The notes under the pieces were generated by a model. It made no database searches. It was given only the letters and a program-made list of their open reading frames with translations, and had not been told where the DNA came from. A program made the position numbers and the translations under genes. Source: [Chlorobium] sp. 445 (GTDB lineage Bacteria > Bacteroidota > Chlorobiia > Chlorobiales > Thermochlorobacteraceae). From it: DNA of 61,518 nucleotides. The stretch is from NCBI GenBank assembly GCA_002763895.1, contig NSLH01000015.1:1-61518 (forward strand), given 5' to 3'. Each line of letters opens with the position of its first letter. The stretch's first letter is position 1. Below are positions 3,950 through 38,604 of the stretch, piece by piece.

Positions 3950-4010
3950 ATGATGGCGTTTGTATGCAAGCGGCAGACTGCACGACAAAACATACAGCAA
4001 AATTATTTTT

Positions 4011-5378
4011 ATGTCTCATCATGGTGTGTCATTCAATTCACAAATAGCGGCATCTGAGCTGTCATTCAGAAAGGATTTTGGCATTTTCTTTACGCCTGCT
4101 TGGGTTGTAGATTTTATGATTAGTCTCATTAGCAGTGAAAAATTCAGGAGTCAGCACCTTTCAATCTTGGAGCCAGCTTGCGGTGATGCACAGTTTTTGC
4201 GGGGCTTAAAGCGAAATAAAGTGGCTTTGTACAACAAGGCACAAAAAACTGGCGTTGAAATCAATAAAAGTGTGTATGTGCCTCTTAGAGAAGATGAAAT
4301 TAAGATTGTTTTCGCTGATTTTCTGCTCTGGGAACCCGGTCAAAAATTTGATCTTATTCTGGGTAATCCACCTTACGGTATCCCGAGTTTATCTAAGCAC
4401 TATGCTATCAAGGTAGATGACAGCACAAAAGCAAGGTATAAGCAACTTTTTAGTACATGGTATGGAAAATACAACATCTATGGTGCATTTATTGAAAAAT
4501 CTATTGAGCTACTAAAAGAACAAGGTGAGCTTATTTTTATTACGCCTGCTTCTTTTCTTTTTCTTGATGAGTTTAAGAAGTTGCGTGAATTTCTCGCACG
4601 ACATGGTGAGACAGTTATCATCTACTTAGGTGATAAGGTTTTCAAGCCTGAGGCAGATATTGCTGCTGCTGTCTTGAAGTTTGTGAACCGTAAGAAACAT
4701 GCTGGACATCTTTCACTTGGCGAGTATGTTCATCAAAAAATTATTCCGCACCGACACAAAACAAACTGGCAAGGTGAAATTATCACATTTAGAAGTGCCT
4801 TTACTGATGCTCTAAAAGAGCATTGCAGTTTTTCGCTTGGGGATCTATTTGACGTTCGCATTTCACCACGGACGCCAGAAATCAAGAAAAATTCATACAT
4901 TATTTGCAGTAAAAAGCAAATAGACAAAAATTATTTACCGATTTTAAACAGTCGGAATTTACAAGTCGGTAAAATTATTTATGAACCGCTTACATCGTGC
5001 TGGATTCACAAAAACAAAACAGGCACACTACGAGCTTATTTTAACAAACCGCATATTGTTGTCGGCTTAGGCTTTCGTGGCGAGCGTCAGATTGCTGCAG
5101 CTTTTGATGCACGGGCTTATCCATGGATGGGCGATGTCTATCATCTTATTGCAAAAGAGTGTTTTACTGACATAGAGCTAAGTCCTCAAGATATTGTGCA
5201 GTATCTAAATTCTGCAACTGTTCGCAGGTATATTATGGACACTTTTCGGGAAGTAACTTATCATTTAAGCATAACACAACTCAAGCAGATTCCTTTGCCT
5301 AAAACTTTTAAGGCACTGCAGCAATTGCTGCATCTTTCTCATTGCCATACGTATCACTCTCAATTAACAGTTAGTTAA
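4011..5378 (+). CDS. TaqI-family N6-adenine DNA methyltransferase, apparently orphan
   Basis: S-adenosylmethionine-dependent DNA methyltransferase of the gamma class. Motif X-like GIFFTPAWVVDFMISL and motif I ILEPACGDAQFLRG are followed by ADFLLWEPGQKFDLILGNPP, which contains the catalytic NPPY (motif IV). The layout and wording match recalled M.TaqI (recognition TCGA), which also shares the FSTWYGKYNIYGAF-like and AYPW-like segments and the C-terminal target-recognition domain. The length of 455 aa is slightly above M.TaqI. ATG 4011 is chosen because the residues before it resemble no family member. No partner endonuclease gene is adjacent. It sits between nrdA and nrdB, only 13 bp before nrdB, so it is probably cotranscribed with it. 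Its codon use is more A/T-rich than nrdA, suggesting recent arrival. Target TCGA is inference from homology. Confidence 0.93.
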   Translation: MSHHGVSFNSQIAASELSFRKDFGIFFTPAWVVDFMISLISSEKFRSQHLSILEPACGDAQFLRGLKRNKVALYNKAQKTGVEINKSVYVPLREDEIKIVFADFLLWEPGQKFDLILGNPPYGIPSLSKHYAIKVDDSTKARYKQLFSTWYGKYNIYGAFIEKSIELLKEQGELIFITPASFLFLDEFKKLREFLARHGETVIIYLGDKVFKPEADIAAAVLKFVNRKKHAGHLSLGEYVHQKIIPHRHKTNWQGEIITFRSAFTDALKEHCSFSLGDLFDVRISPRTPEIKKNSYIICSKKQIDKNYLPILNSRNLQVGKIIYEPLTSCWIHKNKTGTLRAYFNKPHIVVGLGFRGERQIAAAFDARAYPWMGDVYHLIAKECFTDIELSPQDIVQYLNSATVRRYIMDTFREVTYHLSITQLKQIPLPKTFKALQQLLHLSHCHTYHSQLTVS

Positions 5379-6475: not shown

Positions 6476-7939
6476 TCAGGTATTTTCTGATTCTGTACGA
6501 CCTCGCTTTAGCAGTGCAGCGATTTTTTTTAGGCTCTCGATTTCGTATTCGCTGTGGCGGCCTTGCCTTGTTCTCGTATCAGTTTGTGTGGGCTCAGTTC
6601 GTTGTGATTTTGGTTGTTTCAAATACAGTTGTCTTTGACGCAAGCCATGCTCCACACGGCGACGAAATTCTTCTACAGCAATCAGCAAACTTTCACGCAA
6701 TTTGCTAACATCCCAAGGTTTTTGAATATGCCGAAAAATTTGTCCTTCATTGACCAGACGTACAATATCCTCAAGGTCGGTGTACCCTGTCATTAAAATT
6801 TTTGGCACCAGCGGAGCAATGCGATGGGCTGCAATAAGAAAATCTACACCACTCATGCCGGGCATGCGCTGATCTGAAAGTAATACAGAAATAAGAGCAT
6901 TAGATTCGAGTACATCAAGTGCTGTACGCGCATCATTACAAGCAATCACATTAAATTCATCTGAGAGCAAATCTGTGAGTGCAGTTAGCACGCGCTTTTC
7001 ATCATCCACTACTAAGACTTTTGGTTTTCCACTTCGTCCATAAAACACTTCACGGAAGTTACGTAAGTCTTCTAACTCTTCGTTCATCAACGATAGCGAT
7101 AGCGTTGGCGTTACTGCTTCAGTTGTTTCATTTTTTTCATTTTCACTTTCGGCAAGTGTTTTTTCTAAGAGCGCTATATGCTCATTGAGCTTTGCGAAAA
7201 ATTCTTCTTCAAAACTCTGGTATTTTTCAACTTCTGCAATGGTTTCTGGTTTGAATGTTGCAAAAAACTCTTCTTCAAACGATGCATATTGTTTCTTACT
7301 TTCTTCTGTCTGATTCGATGATGTCTGTGCACTTTGCTGCGTTTTACTTTTATTTACGGACTCTGCATGTGTATCATTTTTTACTATTTTTTCTAATTCG
7401 GTTTGCTCCGCATTCGATGGTGTATGCTCTCTTTGTGATGGTTTATCGTTCGGCTGCATTAACCTCTCGCCTGATTTTGACGCAATTGGCGTAACTGGCT
7501 CTTTTGTCAATGTAGCTTTGTTCTGTTCACGCAGCATGTTTTGGTTTAGCTTTTGCTTGCGTAACACAAAGGATGCTGCAGCAAGAGAAACAATTGATTT
7601 TAGCGTTTCTGGCTGCCATGGTTTGCGTACATAGCGGAAAATTTCTCCCAAATTCACCGAATCTAAGACTGCATCGAGGTCGGTGTATCCTGTCAGAAGA
7701 ATTCGCATCGTGTCTGGGAGAATTTGTTTGATTTGTTTTAGCAAGTCGACTCCCTTCATTGTCGGCATGCGCTGATCGCTAATCACCACTGCTAAATCCG
7801 GGTTTTGTATGGCAAAGTTCAGGGCATCTTCACCACTTCTTGCGGTTATCACAATAAAATCATTATCGAAAAGTTGATGCAATGATTCTAAAATCTGCGG
7901 TTCATCATCGACAATCAACATTTTCAGTTTATTCATCAT
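6476..7939 (-). CDS. Double-receiver response regulator without output domain
   Basis: 487 aa with two CheY-like receiver domains. REC1 (about residues 5-120) has the acidic pair in LIVDDEP, phospho-acceptor Asp in ISDQRMP, Thr in LLTGYTD and Lys in RYVRKPW. REC2 (about 310-425) has LVVDDEK, LLSDQRMPG, LMTGYTD and IQKPWD. The roughly 190-residue linker is charged and contains two copies of an EEEFFA motif. No DNA-binding, HD-GYP or GGDEF domain follows, so output is likely through protein contacts. It is the last gene of a minus-strand group: a homologous double-receiver gene, a histidine kinase, then this gene, starting 72 bp after the kinase. Both receivers look phosphorylatable. Start at tandem ATGs 7939/7936. 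Confidence 0.9.
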   Translation of the reverse strand: MMNKLKMLIVDDEPQILESLHQLFDNDFIVITARSGEDALNFAIQNPDLAVVISDQRMPTMKGVDLLKQIKQILPDTMRILLTGYTDLDAVLDSVNLGEIFRYVRKPWQPETLKSIVSLAAASFVLRKQKLNQNMLREQNKATLTKEPVTPIASKSGERLMQPNDKPSQREHTPSNAEQTELEKIVKNDTHAESVNKSKTQQSAQTSSNQTEESKKQYASFEEEFFATFKPETIAEVEKYQSFEEEFFAKLNEHIALLEKTLAESENEKNETTEAVTPTLSLSLMNEELEDLRNFREVFYGRSGKPKVLVVDDEKRVLTALTDLLSDEFNVIACNDARTALDVLESNALISVLLSDQRMPGMSGVDFLIAAHRIAPLVPKILMTGYTDLEDIVRLVNEGQIFRHIQKPWDVSKLRESLLIAVEEFRRRVEHGLRQRQLYLKQPKSQRTEPTQTDTRTRQGRHSEYEIESLKKIAALLKRGRTESENT

Positions 7940-34962: not shown

Positions 34963-37900
34963 CTATCGCACCAGACCAGCCACACGGCGCCGTGCGTTAT
35001 CGGTAGTAAAATCAAACTCAAAGAGCACTCCGAAGTGAAACATCCACTGTCCGCCGTATGTTACGAAATTGCTACCGTCAGCGGTAAAGAAGCCTTGGCG
35101 CAAGGGCTGGGTAAATTGGTCTAATCCATAGGTTGCACTTGCAAAGAGCCGCGTTGGGAAGAGGTAGAAAGACGGCGCTTCCAAACGCAACTCAACACCG
35201 ACATCACGCCGCCACTCGGAAAGTTTTGGAATGCCGCCTTGTGACCACGCTGTGCCAATGTCAAAGTAGGCGGAAAGATAAATTTTGTCGAAGTAGAATT
35301 GCGCAACTTGCCAGTTAATATGCTCGGCAAGGGGGAATCGGTATTCAAAGTGCAAGAATGTGGCTTTGTCTCCGCCAATGGCAAAAAATTCATAACCGCG
35401 CATGCCGAGCAGACCTGAAATGAAATTGTTGAAGAACAGATTGGTTTCGCGCGGTGTAAAGTTCAGCGCGCTGTATGAACGCACGGTCAGCGTATGGCGA
35501 AACTTTGGACTAAATGTCGGTAGCGGCATGTGAAAATTAAGGTCTGCAGTCAAGCGCAAGAATGAAAAATTTTGATACTGCGGAATGAGCCGTCCTGCAC
35601 CTTCGCTAAAGACCAGTGAATCTTGCAAGCTACTGTTTTCATAATCAAGATGAAGGCGTGAATAGAATCCAATTGGATTGATTTCAGCATTCACTGTATG
35701 CGCACGCAAGTCCATTGCCCAAGCAAAGGTGAGTGTGCGACCAATGAAATACGTATCGGAGCTTGCTGGTAAGGTCTGCCCTAACGGTTGCCAGAAGAAC
35801 GAGCCTACTTTTGAGGAATACGGACTGAACGAAAACGTCAAACGGAACTGACTTGCACGAAAAATCCAATGCTCAATTGGCAAGCGAAAACGCAAGGAGA
35901 GATCGAACTGTGTGAGCGTGTAGAAGACATTTGCTGTTGCGCTATCAATACCGATTTTGATTTGTGCGCCATCTTGCACATTGCGCGTTTGGTGATAGAT
36001 GTCCAACGACAGGCGCGGCAAGAATGAAGCAGGGATGATACTTTGGTCTGTATATTCAAACGAGAGAAAGGCATCGCGCTCAAGTTCCAGCAATCCTGCA
36101 AGTCCTGTTGAGCCGCCAGCAACGCTCGAGCCTGGTGCAATTGCAATTGAGCCAAAGAAATTGAGCCGTCCGAGCAGTTCTGCGGAGTTGAATGCGACAC
36201 CGAACTTTGCGGCGCGCCACATATCGCGCAGAAAACTGCCTTGCGTGCGTGCATAAGCATCAAAGCGCAAAAGAGGTAAAATCGCAAAGTTGCCAAATGT
36301 CGTAGTGTATTCGCGCACCTCGAAGTGAGGGGTTTGGGTGTCGTCGTAAGTTGCAAGTGCCGCAGCTAGTTGTTTTTGTTTTGCACGCTCGCTCGTATCA
36401 GTCTGAACTGACGCTATCGGCTCCAATGAGGCAAAGTTGGATTGTGAAGCCAGCTCAGAAGAGTCATTGATGGCATGAACAGTTTTTACAGGACTTTGCT
36501 CTCGCACATACTTTGCATTTGGATTCGCAATTGCTGCTGCATTTTTAATCAGTGCGATTTTGTAGCCATCTGCCGTGAAGAGCGAATAGACCAGATCACC
36601 TTGTGCATTCACTTGTGGCATAAAGGCTCCGCCAATCACATTCGTGAGTTGTTGAGTCTCTTCAGTCTCTAAGTTTTTGCGGTAGATGTTGAAAATGCCG
36701 GTGCGGTTACTTGCAAAGTAAAGGTATTTGCCGTCGGGTGATAAGGCTGGATCACGCTCATCGAGTCCTTCGCTTTCAAGCGTTGAGTCTGTTAGTTGCT
36801 CCAGCTTTTGTGTTTCAAGATTAAGGCTCATTAGCTTTCGTGTATTCTTGATGCCCAAGGCGAAAATGATTTTTTTGCCATCGGGTGAGTATATGGGCAA
36901 CTGAACTTGTTCTCCATGTTTGAACTGCGTGAGCGCTCGCAGTGAGAGTTTTGCACTATCGCCTTGTGCGGTCAGGTCAAAATTCCCTTCTACCAAGTTT
37001 TGTGTGCCATCTTTCTGATGCACCGCTACAAAGGTTTTTCCATCAGGTGCACAGGCGGGTGTTTCTAAGCGCGCTTGGTAGGTCAGCCGAATTTCTTCTT
37101 TCTTTGAGAGGTCGTAGGCAAAGAGGTCATTATACTTTTGAACTTGAAAGTTTGTGCCTGTGTAGCGCGAATAGAAAAGGTATTTGCCATCTGCTGTAAG
37201 TGTGAGGCGCGATGCCACGCCGCTTTGTAGCACATCACCATTATTACTTGCAAGTTGCATGCCGCACATCCTGCAGATCATTTCGTTTTTGCGGCTCTGG
37301 CTCAGTTGGAAGAGTTCCCTAACAGTTGGCACGTGTGAGAGTTTTCCAGGCTCATGTTGCAGCGAGCGCTCAATGATAGCATGCCCGCCGAAATCTGCGT
37401 TGAGATTTGAGATGTAGTAGAGTTTTGCACCATCGGGTGAAAAAATCGGATAGAGATTAGCGTAGCCTTGTGTCTCAATTAGCTTGCCTTCAACTTTGTC
37501 TTGCAGCACACTGGCAATGCGCGCTTGGTAGTCTCGTTCCACATACGTTCGCCACTCGCGGTAGAGTTCGGTTGAGGGTTTGCCAAAGGTAGTTTCCAGC
37601 ACAGCATGCACATTGAGCGCTGTAAGTGAGGCAAAGTTTTTGCATAGAGTCTCGAGTTTTTCTTCGCCGTACCGTTCTGCAAGAAAGCGTGTGAGTGCAA
37701 AGCCCGAGTTGTAGGTAAATTCAAAATCGATACTGCGCTTTGAGACAAAATTTGAGAGTTCATCGAGGTCGAAGAGTTTTTTTTCTAATGCCAGACTGCG
37801 CAGAATCATATCGCGGTGTGTATCCCAATTTTCATAGCGTAGTTCAGGGCGCTGATACTGTGCGACACCTTCCGCTAACCAAAATGGCACGTTGATGCCT

Positions 37901-38418
37901 GCAATCGGATAGGAGACCAAAATGTTTGGGAAGCCATAAAGAATATCAGGTCGGCGCACTTGCTCATAGCCAAAGGCTTGCAGATACAGCGCAGGTATCT
38001 GTGCACCAAATTTTTGTGCGGCGGTGAGTGTAACGATGTGCGTATATTCGTGTGTGATGACATTGCGTAGCCAATTGTGCTGCCCGCGCAAGTTAAATTC
38101 TAATGCAGGCGCCCAAATCTCGATTTTGTTTTCAAAAAAATATGCCCCGCCGTTTGAGTAGTCGTCCGTGTCTTTGATGATGATACTGACTTTGCCTGGG
38201 TCGTGATTGTACAGTGAGGTAATGGGTGTATAAATCTCCTCGGCAATTTTTGCGGCAACTTTTGCAGAGCGTTCTGCGCCTTCGTGGTAATGAATTGCAA
38301 AATGCTCGGTCTCGATGGTACACCAGCGCAGTTCAGGGTGGCTATAGGATTCGGGCTGCGCGATAGCAACATTTGAAAAGACTATCACGATTGCGCCGCA
38401 TTGCGCAATCCAGCTCAT
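34963..38418 (-). CDS. Secreted gluzincin metalloprotease / TolB-like propeller / outer-membrane barrel fusion
   Basis: About 1151 aa. A signal sequence (IAQCGAIVIVFSNVAIAQ) is followed by a peptidase_MA-like zinc domain with HExxH in NVITHEYTHIV and a likely third-ligand Glu in FWLAEGVAQYQRPE. A PD40/TolB-type beta propeller follows (YPIFSPDGAKLYYIS, PIYSPDGKKIIFALG, ALSPDGKYLYFASNRTG and others) with an unusual CxxC insert (MICRMCGMQL). The last roughly 400 residues are beta-rich with alternating aromatic residues, as in an outer-membrane surface-antigen barrel. Probable role: an outer-membrane-anchored surface or periplasmic protease; substrate unknown. ATG 38418 is chosen; TTG 38430 is an in-frame alternative. 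Confidence 0.85.
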   Translation of the reverse strand: MSWIAQCGAIVIVFSNVAIAQPESYSHPELRWCTIETEHFAIHYHEGAERSAKVAAKIAEEIYTPITSLYNHDPGKVSIIIKDTDDYSNGGAYFFENKIEIWAPALEFNLRGQHNWLRNVITHEYTHIVTLTAAQKFGAQIPALYLQAFGYEQVRRPDILYGFPNILVSYPIAGINVPFWLAEGVAQYQRPELRYENWDTHRDMILRSLALEKKLFDLDELSNFVSKRSIDFEFTYNSGFALTRFLAERYGEEKLETLCKNFASLTALNVHAVLETTFGKPSTELYREWRTYVERDYQARIASVLQDKVEGKLIETQGYANLYPIFSPDGAKLYYISNLNADFGGHAIIERSLQHEPGKLSHVPTVRELFQLSQSRKNEMICRMCGMQLASNNGDVLQSGVASRLTLTADGKYLFYSRYTGTNFQVQKYNDLFAYDLSKKEEIRLTYQARLETPACAPDGKTFVAVHQKDGTQNLVEGNFDLTAQGDSAKLSLRALTQFKHGEQVQLPIYSPDGKKIIFALGIKNTRKLMSLNLETQKLEQLTDSTLESEGLDERDPALSPDGKYLYFASNRTGIFNIYRKNLETEETQQLTNVIGGAFMPQVNAQGDLVYSLFTADGYKIALIKNAAAIANPNAKYVREQSPVKTVHAINDSSELASQSNFASLEPIASVQTDTSERAKQKQLAAALATYDDTQTPHFEVREYTTTFGNFAILPLLRFDAYARTQGSFLRDMWRAAKFGVAFNSAELLGRLNFFGSIAIAPGSSVAGGSTGLAGLLELERDAFLSFEYTDQSIIPASFLPRLSLDIYHQTRNVQDGAQIKIGIDSATANVFYTLTQFDLSLRFRLPIEHWIFRASQFRLTFSFSPYSSKVGSFFWQPLGQTLPASSDTYFIGRTLTFAWAMDLRAHTVNAEINPIGFYSRLHLDYENSSLQDSLVFSEGAGRLIPQYQNFSFLRLTADLNFHMPLPTFSPKFRHTLTVRSYSALNFTPRETNLFFNNFISGLLGMRGYEFFAIGGDKATFLHFEYRFPLAEHINWQVAQFYFDKIYLSAYFDIGTAWSQGGIPKLSEWRRDVGVELRLEAPSFYLFPTRLFASATYGLDQFTQPLRQGFFTADGSNFVTYGGQWMFHFGVLFEFDFTTDNARRRVAGLVR

Positions 38419-38604
38419 CAGGCTTTTCAATGCTTTGTGGATTTAAGATTCTTCAAGACTTTTGCTGCAAGAGCGTTCGTATGCTTGCAGGTTACAGCAT
38501 GCAATATGCCGAAGCCTGCACAATAAAACAATTGACGCAGTTTTCTCTTACTCCAATGCTTTTGATGCTATATTTGCGCGCTTTTGAAACTTATATTTTT
38601 CTCT

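What the first reader, a model, noticed from the sequence alone, without database searches (positions are those of the whole stretch)
34963..38418. Single polypeptide joining a zinc protease, a TolB-like propeller and an outer-membrane barrel
The order signal peptide - HEYTH gluzincin domain - PD40 propeller with a CxxC insert - beta-rich barrel-like C-terminus would tether a protease and an interaction platform to the outer membrane in one chain. The CxxC (CRMC) in the propeller could bind metal or form a disulfide. It could process surface proteins or monitor outer-membrane assembly.
Basis: partly seen in the sequence, partly recalled or inferred. Interest (0 to 1): 0.5.

Follow-up and report, generated by a model that had tools for sequence, protein, structure and literature searches.

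The report
Barrel-anchored zinc protease tied to T9SS
This gene encodes a zinc protease joined in one chain to a TolB-like propeller and an outer-membrane barrel, and its relatives almost always occur together with a secreted, inactivated protease of the type IX secretion system, which points to an undescribed accessory of that protein export route.

Summary
ORF 34963-38430 (-), 1155 aa, joins a signal peptide, a gluzincin peptidase (H127, E128, H131, E187), a TolB-like propeller and a predicted 16-stranded Omp85-like barrel. The four zinc-site residues are intact in 102 of 102 aligned sequences (95 distinct). The CxxC is a clade-specific insert (8 of 95) in a low-confidence stretch.

In 65 of 69 related loci a gene of the inactivated, T9SS-exported M6 protease type (M6i, NF052323) lies directly upstream, usually after PorV and, in Ignavibacteria-type loci, the sortase PorU. 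In 198 genomes of the window's phylum, full-length homologues and M6i occur in the same 78; all 78 have SprA; in 68 the two genes are neighbours. In 100 genomes of a second phylum, 93 agree. Presence is all-or-none in most families, so independent events are few, and in the window's own genome the genes lie apart.

Best reading: an envelope protease anchored by an Omp85-like barrel, its soluble part probably periplasmic, serving type IX secretion with M6i as partner. Substrate and direction of that relation are not shown. The barrel-propeller layout was described in 2014 (WD40-Omp85); the protease-M6i-T9SS link was not found in the listings searched.

The parts
34963..38430 (-). whole gene, 1155 codons plus stop; TTG start at 38430, in-frame ATG at 38418
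   Evidence: ORF; homologues at 82% and 67% identity in L005 and L006 and 29-57% (best segment) in the other 67 loci
38359..38430 (-). signal peptide, residues 1-24, cleavage before Q25
   Evidence: hydrophobic N-terminus ending AIA|Q, read by eye; Q25 in 102 of 102 aligned sequences
37495..38358 (-). gluzincin-type zinc peptidase domain, residues 25-312
   Evidence: Peptidase_MA_2 over cut-off; domain model pLDDT 88.2, pTM 0.86; best structural matches M30 lugdulysin Z 16.7 (rmsd 4.1, 240 aligned) and M1 aminopeptidases up to Z 14.5; most conserved domain, mean pairwise identity 0.585
38038..38052 (-). HEYTH zinc-binding motif, residues 127-131
   Evidence: H127, E128, H131 in 102 of 102
37870..37872 (-). 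E187, third zinc ligand in WLAEG
   Evidence: 102 of 102; assignment as ligand is by analogy with gluzincins
36526..37494 (-). TolB-like PD40 propeller, residues 313-635
   Evidence: PD40 over cut-off; VIA Z about 25 to TolB, e.g. 3iax rmsd 2.8 over 244
37264..37275 (-). CRMC (residues 386-389) in a clade-specific insert
   Evidence: 8 of 95 distinct sequences; pLDDT under 50 at 360-397
35020..36285 (-). 16-stranded Omp85-like outer-membrane barrel, residues 716-1137
   Evidence: AlphaFold2 strands; VIA Z about 21 to FhaC and BamA with rmsd 4.1-4.9 over 301-341 residues
35371..35415 (-). GLLGMRGYEFFAIGG, residues 1006-1020, in the loop between strands 11 and 12, where Omp85 barrels carry an RGF/Y motif
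   Evidence: G1006, G1009, G1020 in 102 of 102 and Y1013 in 101 of 102; R1011 in 36, K in 61, Q in 5 of 102; the Omp85 motif itself is from recall

Best explanation
The gene encodes an outer-membrane-anchored zinc protease: exported by Sec and signal peptidase I, held in the outer membrane by a 16-stranded Omp85-like barrel, with an active gluzincin domain and a TolB-like propeller that most likely hang into the periplasm, as POTRA domains and the PlpD enzyme domain do. It works as an accessory of the type IX secretion system together with M6i, a catalytically dead M6-type protease that carries a T9SS sorting domain and so should pass through the periplasm and out through SprA and PorV. Most likely the propeller binds M6i or a T9SS cargo and the protease trims or clears it at the outer membrane, with M6i as substrate, adaptor or regulator. 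Shown by sequence: architecture, intact zinc site, gene linkage, co-occurrence, loss of the M6i active site. Inferred: periplasmic topology, proteolytic activity, physical contact with M6i, and the step acted on.
For: Architecture and zinc site. Gene order: a cluster of the M6i type lies directly upstream in 65 of 69 loci, a PorV cluster is found in 50 of 69 and a PorU cluster in 33 of 69, the last in Ignavibacteria-type loci only; names rest on profile scans of L034, L053 and L054. Same 78 of 198 genomes for this gene and M6i; M6i upstream on the same strand with -4 to 1995 bases between the profile matches in 68 of 78. SprA in 78 of 78. Second phylum: 83 both, 10 neither, 7 discordant of 100. 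M6i has no HExxH at its M6 site (the GLPDL stretch; M6 motif recalled): no such string in 79 of 80 distinct sequences, and in the last it lies elsewhere. It keeps the T9SS type A sorting domain in the nine M6i scanned. Own genome: M6i directly after PorV on contig C7, PorU on C40, SprA on C7. Periplasmic precedent for an enzyme on an Omp85 barrel: PlpD, PMC11116518 (abstract and Discussion read).
Against: No direct evidence of activity, localisation or contact with M6i. Co-occurrence is clade-structured: among SprA-bearing genomes only one family (f17, 24 with and 1 without) is mixed, so 78 of 78 counts species, not events. In the window's own lineage the genes are dispersed: all 7 sampled genomes of families f1 and f2 are among the 10 where the two are not neighbours. 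SprA occurs in 76 further genomes without this gene and in 9 of 10 second-phylum genomes that lack both, so the pair is not needed for T9SS itself. One second-phylum genome with an M6i match (G214) has no SprA match. In that phylum no M6i match reaches the curated cut-off (0 of 100). A second protein of the same architecture exists in the own genome away from M6i, so a more general envelope role is possible.
Confidence: 0.6

Rival explanations
1. A general outer-membrane quality-control protease, like BepA in Proteobacteria, that clears misfolded barrel proteins or recruits partners for assembly; its place beside PorV and M6i reflects only their shared need for an intact outer membrane.
For: TolB-like propeller and Omp85-like barrel; a paralogue of the same architecture lies in the same genome with no T9SS gene recognisable by eye in its 7.5-kb stretch; BepA, YcaL and LoiP are zinc proteases linked to barrel biogenesis (passages of PMC13067283; abstract of PMC8423444 in a listing).
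Against: Absent as a strong match from 76 of 154 SprA-bearing genomes and from the 20 listed f3 genomes, which also need barrel assembly; exact co-occurrence with M6i in the 198 genomes; BepA is M48, a different family.
Confidence: 0.2
2. The barrel carries its own protease-propeller part to the cell surface, as was once proposed for PlpD, where it cuts surface or environmental proteins and M6i acts as a surface partner.
For: M6i is predicted to reach the surface through T9SS; the barrel resembles FhaC as well as BamA.
Against: For PlpD the enzyme domain was found to stay in the periplasm and export of a folded domain was judged unfavourable (PMC11116518); here about 690 residues would have to cross.
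Confidence: 0.12
3. An Omp85-type assembly factor (a BamA-BamB-like fusion, as suggested in 2014 for WD40-Omp85 proteins) in which the peptidase fold is only structural.
For: Omp85-like barrel and propeller; suggestion in PMC4104836 section 10.
Against: Zinc site intact in 102 of 102 and the peptidase is the most conserved domain, mean pairwise identity 0.585 against 0.414 for the propeller and 0.424 for the barrel.
Confidence: 0.08

Closest known systems
WD40-Omp85 subfamily (Heinz and Lithgow 2014, PMC4104836)
   Same: N-terminal TolB-like propeller and an Omp85-type barrel without POTRA domains (section 10 read)
   Different: The main text holds no word beginning with 'peptidase', 'aminopeptidase' or 'gluzincin'; their metalloprotease group is a different one with domain PF00149. 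Their sequence lists (supplements) were not seen, so whether this protein is in their cluster is unknown.
PlpD (patatin-Omp85 enzyme)
   Same: Enzyme domain at the N-terminus of an Omp85 barrel; soluble part in the periplasm
   Different: Lipase with a POTRA domain and a homodimer; here a zinc protease and a propeller, and no POTRA model matched
TolB
   Same: Propeller fold and PD40 repeats
   Different: 68.7 bits against the TolB equivalog cut-off of 343.15; TolB has no protease or barrel
M30 lugdulysin, M1 aminopeptidases, M9 collagenases
   Same: Gluzincin-type fold with HExxH and a downstream Glu
   Different: 8-16% identity in the listed structural alignments; the only PDB sequence match had E 0.52
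PorU, PorV and T9SS-dependent M6i (NF052323)
   Same: Neighbouring genes and shared distribution
   Different: Different domains; this protein showed no sorting-domain match and is anchored by its own barrel

Membership tests
Gluzincin zinc peptidases (Peptidase_MA) | HExxH plus downstream Glu in a thermolysin-like fold | tested here: met
   102 of 102 keep H, E, H, E; fold matches M30 and M1; PF13485 43.6 bits over cut-off 32.4. In some homologues PF13485 is below cut-off (21.9, 22.7, 22.6 bits in L034, L135, L142)
Gluzincin zinc peptidases (Peptidase_MA) | proteolytic activity | not testable with these tools
   needs an assay
Omp85 superfamily | 16-stranded transmembrane barrel | tested here: met
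   16 strands of 9 or more residues between 716 and 1137 in the model; VIA Z about 21 to FhaC and BamA
Omp85 superfamily | sequence match to Omp85 barrel models | tested here: inconclusive
   no Omp85 Pfam model listed at E up to 10 for the window protein nor at E up to 0.01 for seven relatives including the paralogue; the profile of 57 sequences found only propeller-bearing chains in the PDB
Omp85 superfamily | RGF/Y motif in the loop between strands 11 and 12 | tested here: inconclusive
   GMRGY in the window protein at that place; R in 36, K in 61, Q in 5 of 102
Omp85 superfamily | at least one POTRA domain (strict definition) | tested here: not met
   no POTRA model matched; PMC4104836 admits POTRA-less subfamilies, so this bars the strict definition only
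WD40-Omp85 subfamily | TolB-like propeller before an Omp85-type barrel | tested here: met
   by predicted structure
WD40-Omp85 subfamily | membership in the 2014 sequence cluster | not tested
   supplementary lists not available
TolB | equivalog score | tested here: not met
   68.7 bits against 343.15
Type IX secretion components | genetic linkage and shared distribution | tested here: met
   clade-structured, and not linked in the window's own genome
Type IX secretion components | needed for T9SS secretion or cargo attachment | not testable with these tools
   needs deletion strains

The most novel reading that the evidence does not exclude
A two-part envelope protease switch: a barrel-anchored active protease whose obligate partner is a dead protease that the type IX system itself delivers to the far side of the membrane, so that export of M6i gates or aims the protease and reports on secretion. 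In the five genomes that keep M6i and this gene but show no PorU match, the pair might stand in for part of the sortase step.
Probability: 0.2. Interest if true: 0.8.

Novelty: new variant of a known kind. Interest (0 to 1): 0.55.

Why it matters
If right, type IX secretion in these lineages has an outer-membrane protease and a dedicated pseudo-protease partner that many other SprA-bearing genomes lack (76 of 154 sampled), and an Omp85-like barrel has been reused to hold a protease. It gives a named partner pair that can be tested by deletion and pull-down in a cultured relative.

Tried and rejected
CxxC as a general functional site: rejected, only 8 of 95 distinct sequences have it at that place; unrelated CxxC strings occur elsewhere in other clades. 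Operon with window neighbours: rejected; the flanking genes scanned are HldE-type kinase, HisN, a SanA/ElyC-like protein, PrmC and a NUDIX protein, none of T9SS. Degenerate, inactive protease: rejected on conservation. TolB orthologue: rejected on score. Sequence profiles against the PDB reached neither Omp85 nor a gluzincin convincingly; both relations rest on predicted folds. The full-chain fold search was filled by propellers and barrels, so the peptidase was folded alone; the barrel alone was not folded. The HEMAH string in one M6i genome lies at position 138, away from the M6 site, and was discounted.

Literature: searches aimed at this link were T9SS with PorU, PorV, M6 family and metalloprotease (0 papers); T9SS with Ignavibacteri, PorU and operon; T9SS, PorV and pseudoprotease; T9SS with Omp85 (17 papers, 15 listed, passages of one read); Omp85 with WD40 and metallopeptidase (3 listed, none opened); BamA, propeller, metalloprotease, Omp85, fusion (2 listed, both looked into); Omp85, TpsB, superfamily, POTRA, metalloprotease (5 listed, three looked into). 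No listing or passage seen describes the link; listed papers not opened may. Other searches. Most subscription papers, and preprints, are not held.
Full report
Observation. Pfam finds Peptidase_MA_2 (best stretch 178-297) and PD40 repeats over their cut-offs. A pattern-seeded scan of 84,980 species genomes returned 69 related loci, in records titled Candidatus Thermochlorobacter, Ignavibacteria, Melioribacter, KSB1, Marinimicrobia and unspecified Bacteroidetes, among others. Most match over nearly the whole length; others are partial, several at contig ends.

Conservation. In an alignment of 102 sequences of 950 aa or more (95 distinct), H127, E128, H131, E187 and Y240 are kept in all, as is Q25 directly after the signal peptide. 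These 102 hold 46 of the 78 phylum genomes discussed below, plus 56 rows. Of 33 further partial or dropped homologues, 31 show both motifs by pattern. The peptidase is the most conserved domain (mean pairwise identity 0.585; propeller 0.414; barrel 0.424). Q after the cleavage site fits the Q-rule of Bacteroidetes; that paper reports a Q-value of 55% for Chloroherpeton and 77% for Ignavibacterium album but under 9% for most Chlorobi (passages of PMC5837995). The CxxC insert is confined to the Thermochlorobacter-like clade (8 of 95 distinct).

Structure. The full-chain AlphaFold2 model has mean pLDDT 78.1 and pTM 0.79. Residues 311-635 match TolB (Z about 25). Sixteen strands of 9 or more residues lie between 716 and 1137, and structural matches are FhaC (Z 21.3, rmsd 4.1, 308 aligned), Deinococcus BamA (Z 21.2, rmsd 4.9, 341) and P. 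gingivalis BAM (Z 21.0, rmsd 4.2, 301). The GMRGY stretch falls in the loop between strands 11 and 12. The rmsd values are moderate and no Omp85 Pfam model matched, so I call the barrel Omp85-like. The window protein ends in an 18-residue tail after the last strand, whereas many relatives end in Phe close to it. The peptidase folded alone (pLDDT 88.2, pTM 0.86) matches M30 lugdulysin (Z 16.7, rmsd 4.1, 240) and M1 aminopeptidases.

Context. Clustering the neighbours in the 69 loci shows recurring orders. A cluster of the M6i type is directly upstream in 65 of 69; the exceptions are the two Thermochlorobacter-type loci and two loci that begin at or near this gene. A PorV cluster is present in 50 of 69. 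A PorU cluster is present in 33 of 69, in Ignavibacteria-type loci and not in the KSB1 or Marinimicrobia ones. Profiles on L034, L054 and L053 name them T9SS sortase PorU (L034 only), PorV, and NF052323 'T9SS-dependent M6-like inactivated metalloprotease'. A protein matching DUF5683 around its cut-off follows in the six loci scanned. The Marinimicrobia M6i of L053 scores 394.9 bits, under the NF052323 cut-off of 600. No HExxH string occurs in 79 of 80 distinct M6i sequences of 750 aa or more, and in the last it is away from the M6 site.

Distribution. In 198 genomes of the window's phylum the profile of this protein gives 98 genomes with a match at 1e-20. These split clearly: 78 with a best segment of 707 bits or more and 20 with at most 148 bits, which I take as the paralogous family. 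M6i matches 78 genomes (74 over the curated cut-off). The two sets of 78 are identical. M6i lies upstream on the same strand with -4 to 1995 bases between the profile matches in 68 of 78. PorU matches 140 of 198 at 1e-20 (136 over cut-off) and 73 of the 78; the five without PorU keep M6i with its sorting domain. SprA matches 154 of 198 at 1e-50, including 78 of 78.

In 100 genomes of the phylum of a Marinimicrobia record, 83 have both, 10 neither, 3 only this gene and 4 only M6i (this gene at 1e-50, M6i at 1e-20 with 0 of 100 over the curated cut-off). One of the 83 (G307) has only a weak match to the C-terminal part of M6i. The three with only this gene start in the first bases of a contig, and the four with only M6i lie near a contig end or have short frames, so assembly breaks are a likely but unproven cause. 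SprA is matched in 98 of those 100, including 9 of the 10 with neither and missing in G214, which has an M6i match. All 15 genomes checked by handle, chosen because they carry this gene, also have M6i (5 of 15 over the cut-off).

Limits. Presence is all-or-none in every SprA-bearing family but f17 (24 with, 1 without), so independent events are few; the conserved adjacency across phyla is the stronger argument. In the window's own genome the gene stands apart from PorV-M6i (contig C7), SprA (C7) and PorU (C40). The same genome holds a paralogue with the same order of peptidase, propeller and a barrel-like end (L127:895-4494; Peptidase_MA_2 49.6 bits and PD40 by Pfam, barrel by eye only).

Reading. 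The protein is an exported protease held by its own barrel. With Omp85 barrels the N-terminal part is periplasmic, and PlpD shows the same for an enzyme domain. M6i should cross the periplasm before SprA and PorV carry it out, so the two can meet there. I therefore favour a T9SS accessory protease with M6i as substrate, adaptor or regulator. Which of these is not decided by the data.

Known or new. The barrel-propeller layout was described in 2014 as WD40-Omp85 with a suggested BamA-BamB-like role. Its main text has no word beginning with 'peptidase', and the searches listed under Tried and rejected did not show the M6i-T9SS link in print.

Noticed in passing
L127:895-4494 (-), own genome contig C7: Second 1200-aa protein with peptidase, PD40 propeller and a barrel-like end, with HHELIH and a C-terminal F; about 13 kb from M6i on the same contig.
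   Followed up: partly
G061, G081, G108, G119, G171 (family f17): SprA, M6i with sorting domain and this gene are kept without a PorU match at 1e-20; the PorV next to M6i was confirmed by profile only in G108.
   Followed up: partly
G151 (family f17): The one f17 genome with SprA but no strong match to this gene, and none to M6i or PorU; its genus-mate G081 has this gene and M6i.
   Followed up: no
second-phylum genomes of 0.8-1.0 Mb: G218, G239, G247, G275, G297, G308: Small genomes keep SprA matches without M6i or this gene.
   Followed up: no
L034, L053, L054, L135, L136, L138, gene downstream: A protein matching DUF5683 around its cut-off directly follows this gene; function unknown.
   Followed up: partly
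window 6476-7939 (-): Protein with two receiver-type stretches (response-regulator profiles match near residues 3-140 and 305-437).
   Followed up: no
window 3960-5378 (+): Weak partial matches to PglX-type adenine methyltransferases, far below cut-offs.
   Followed up: no
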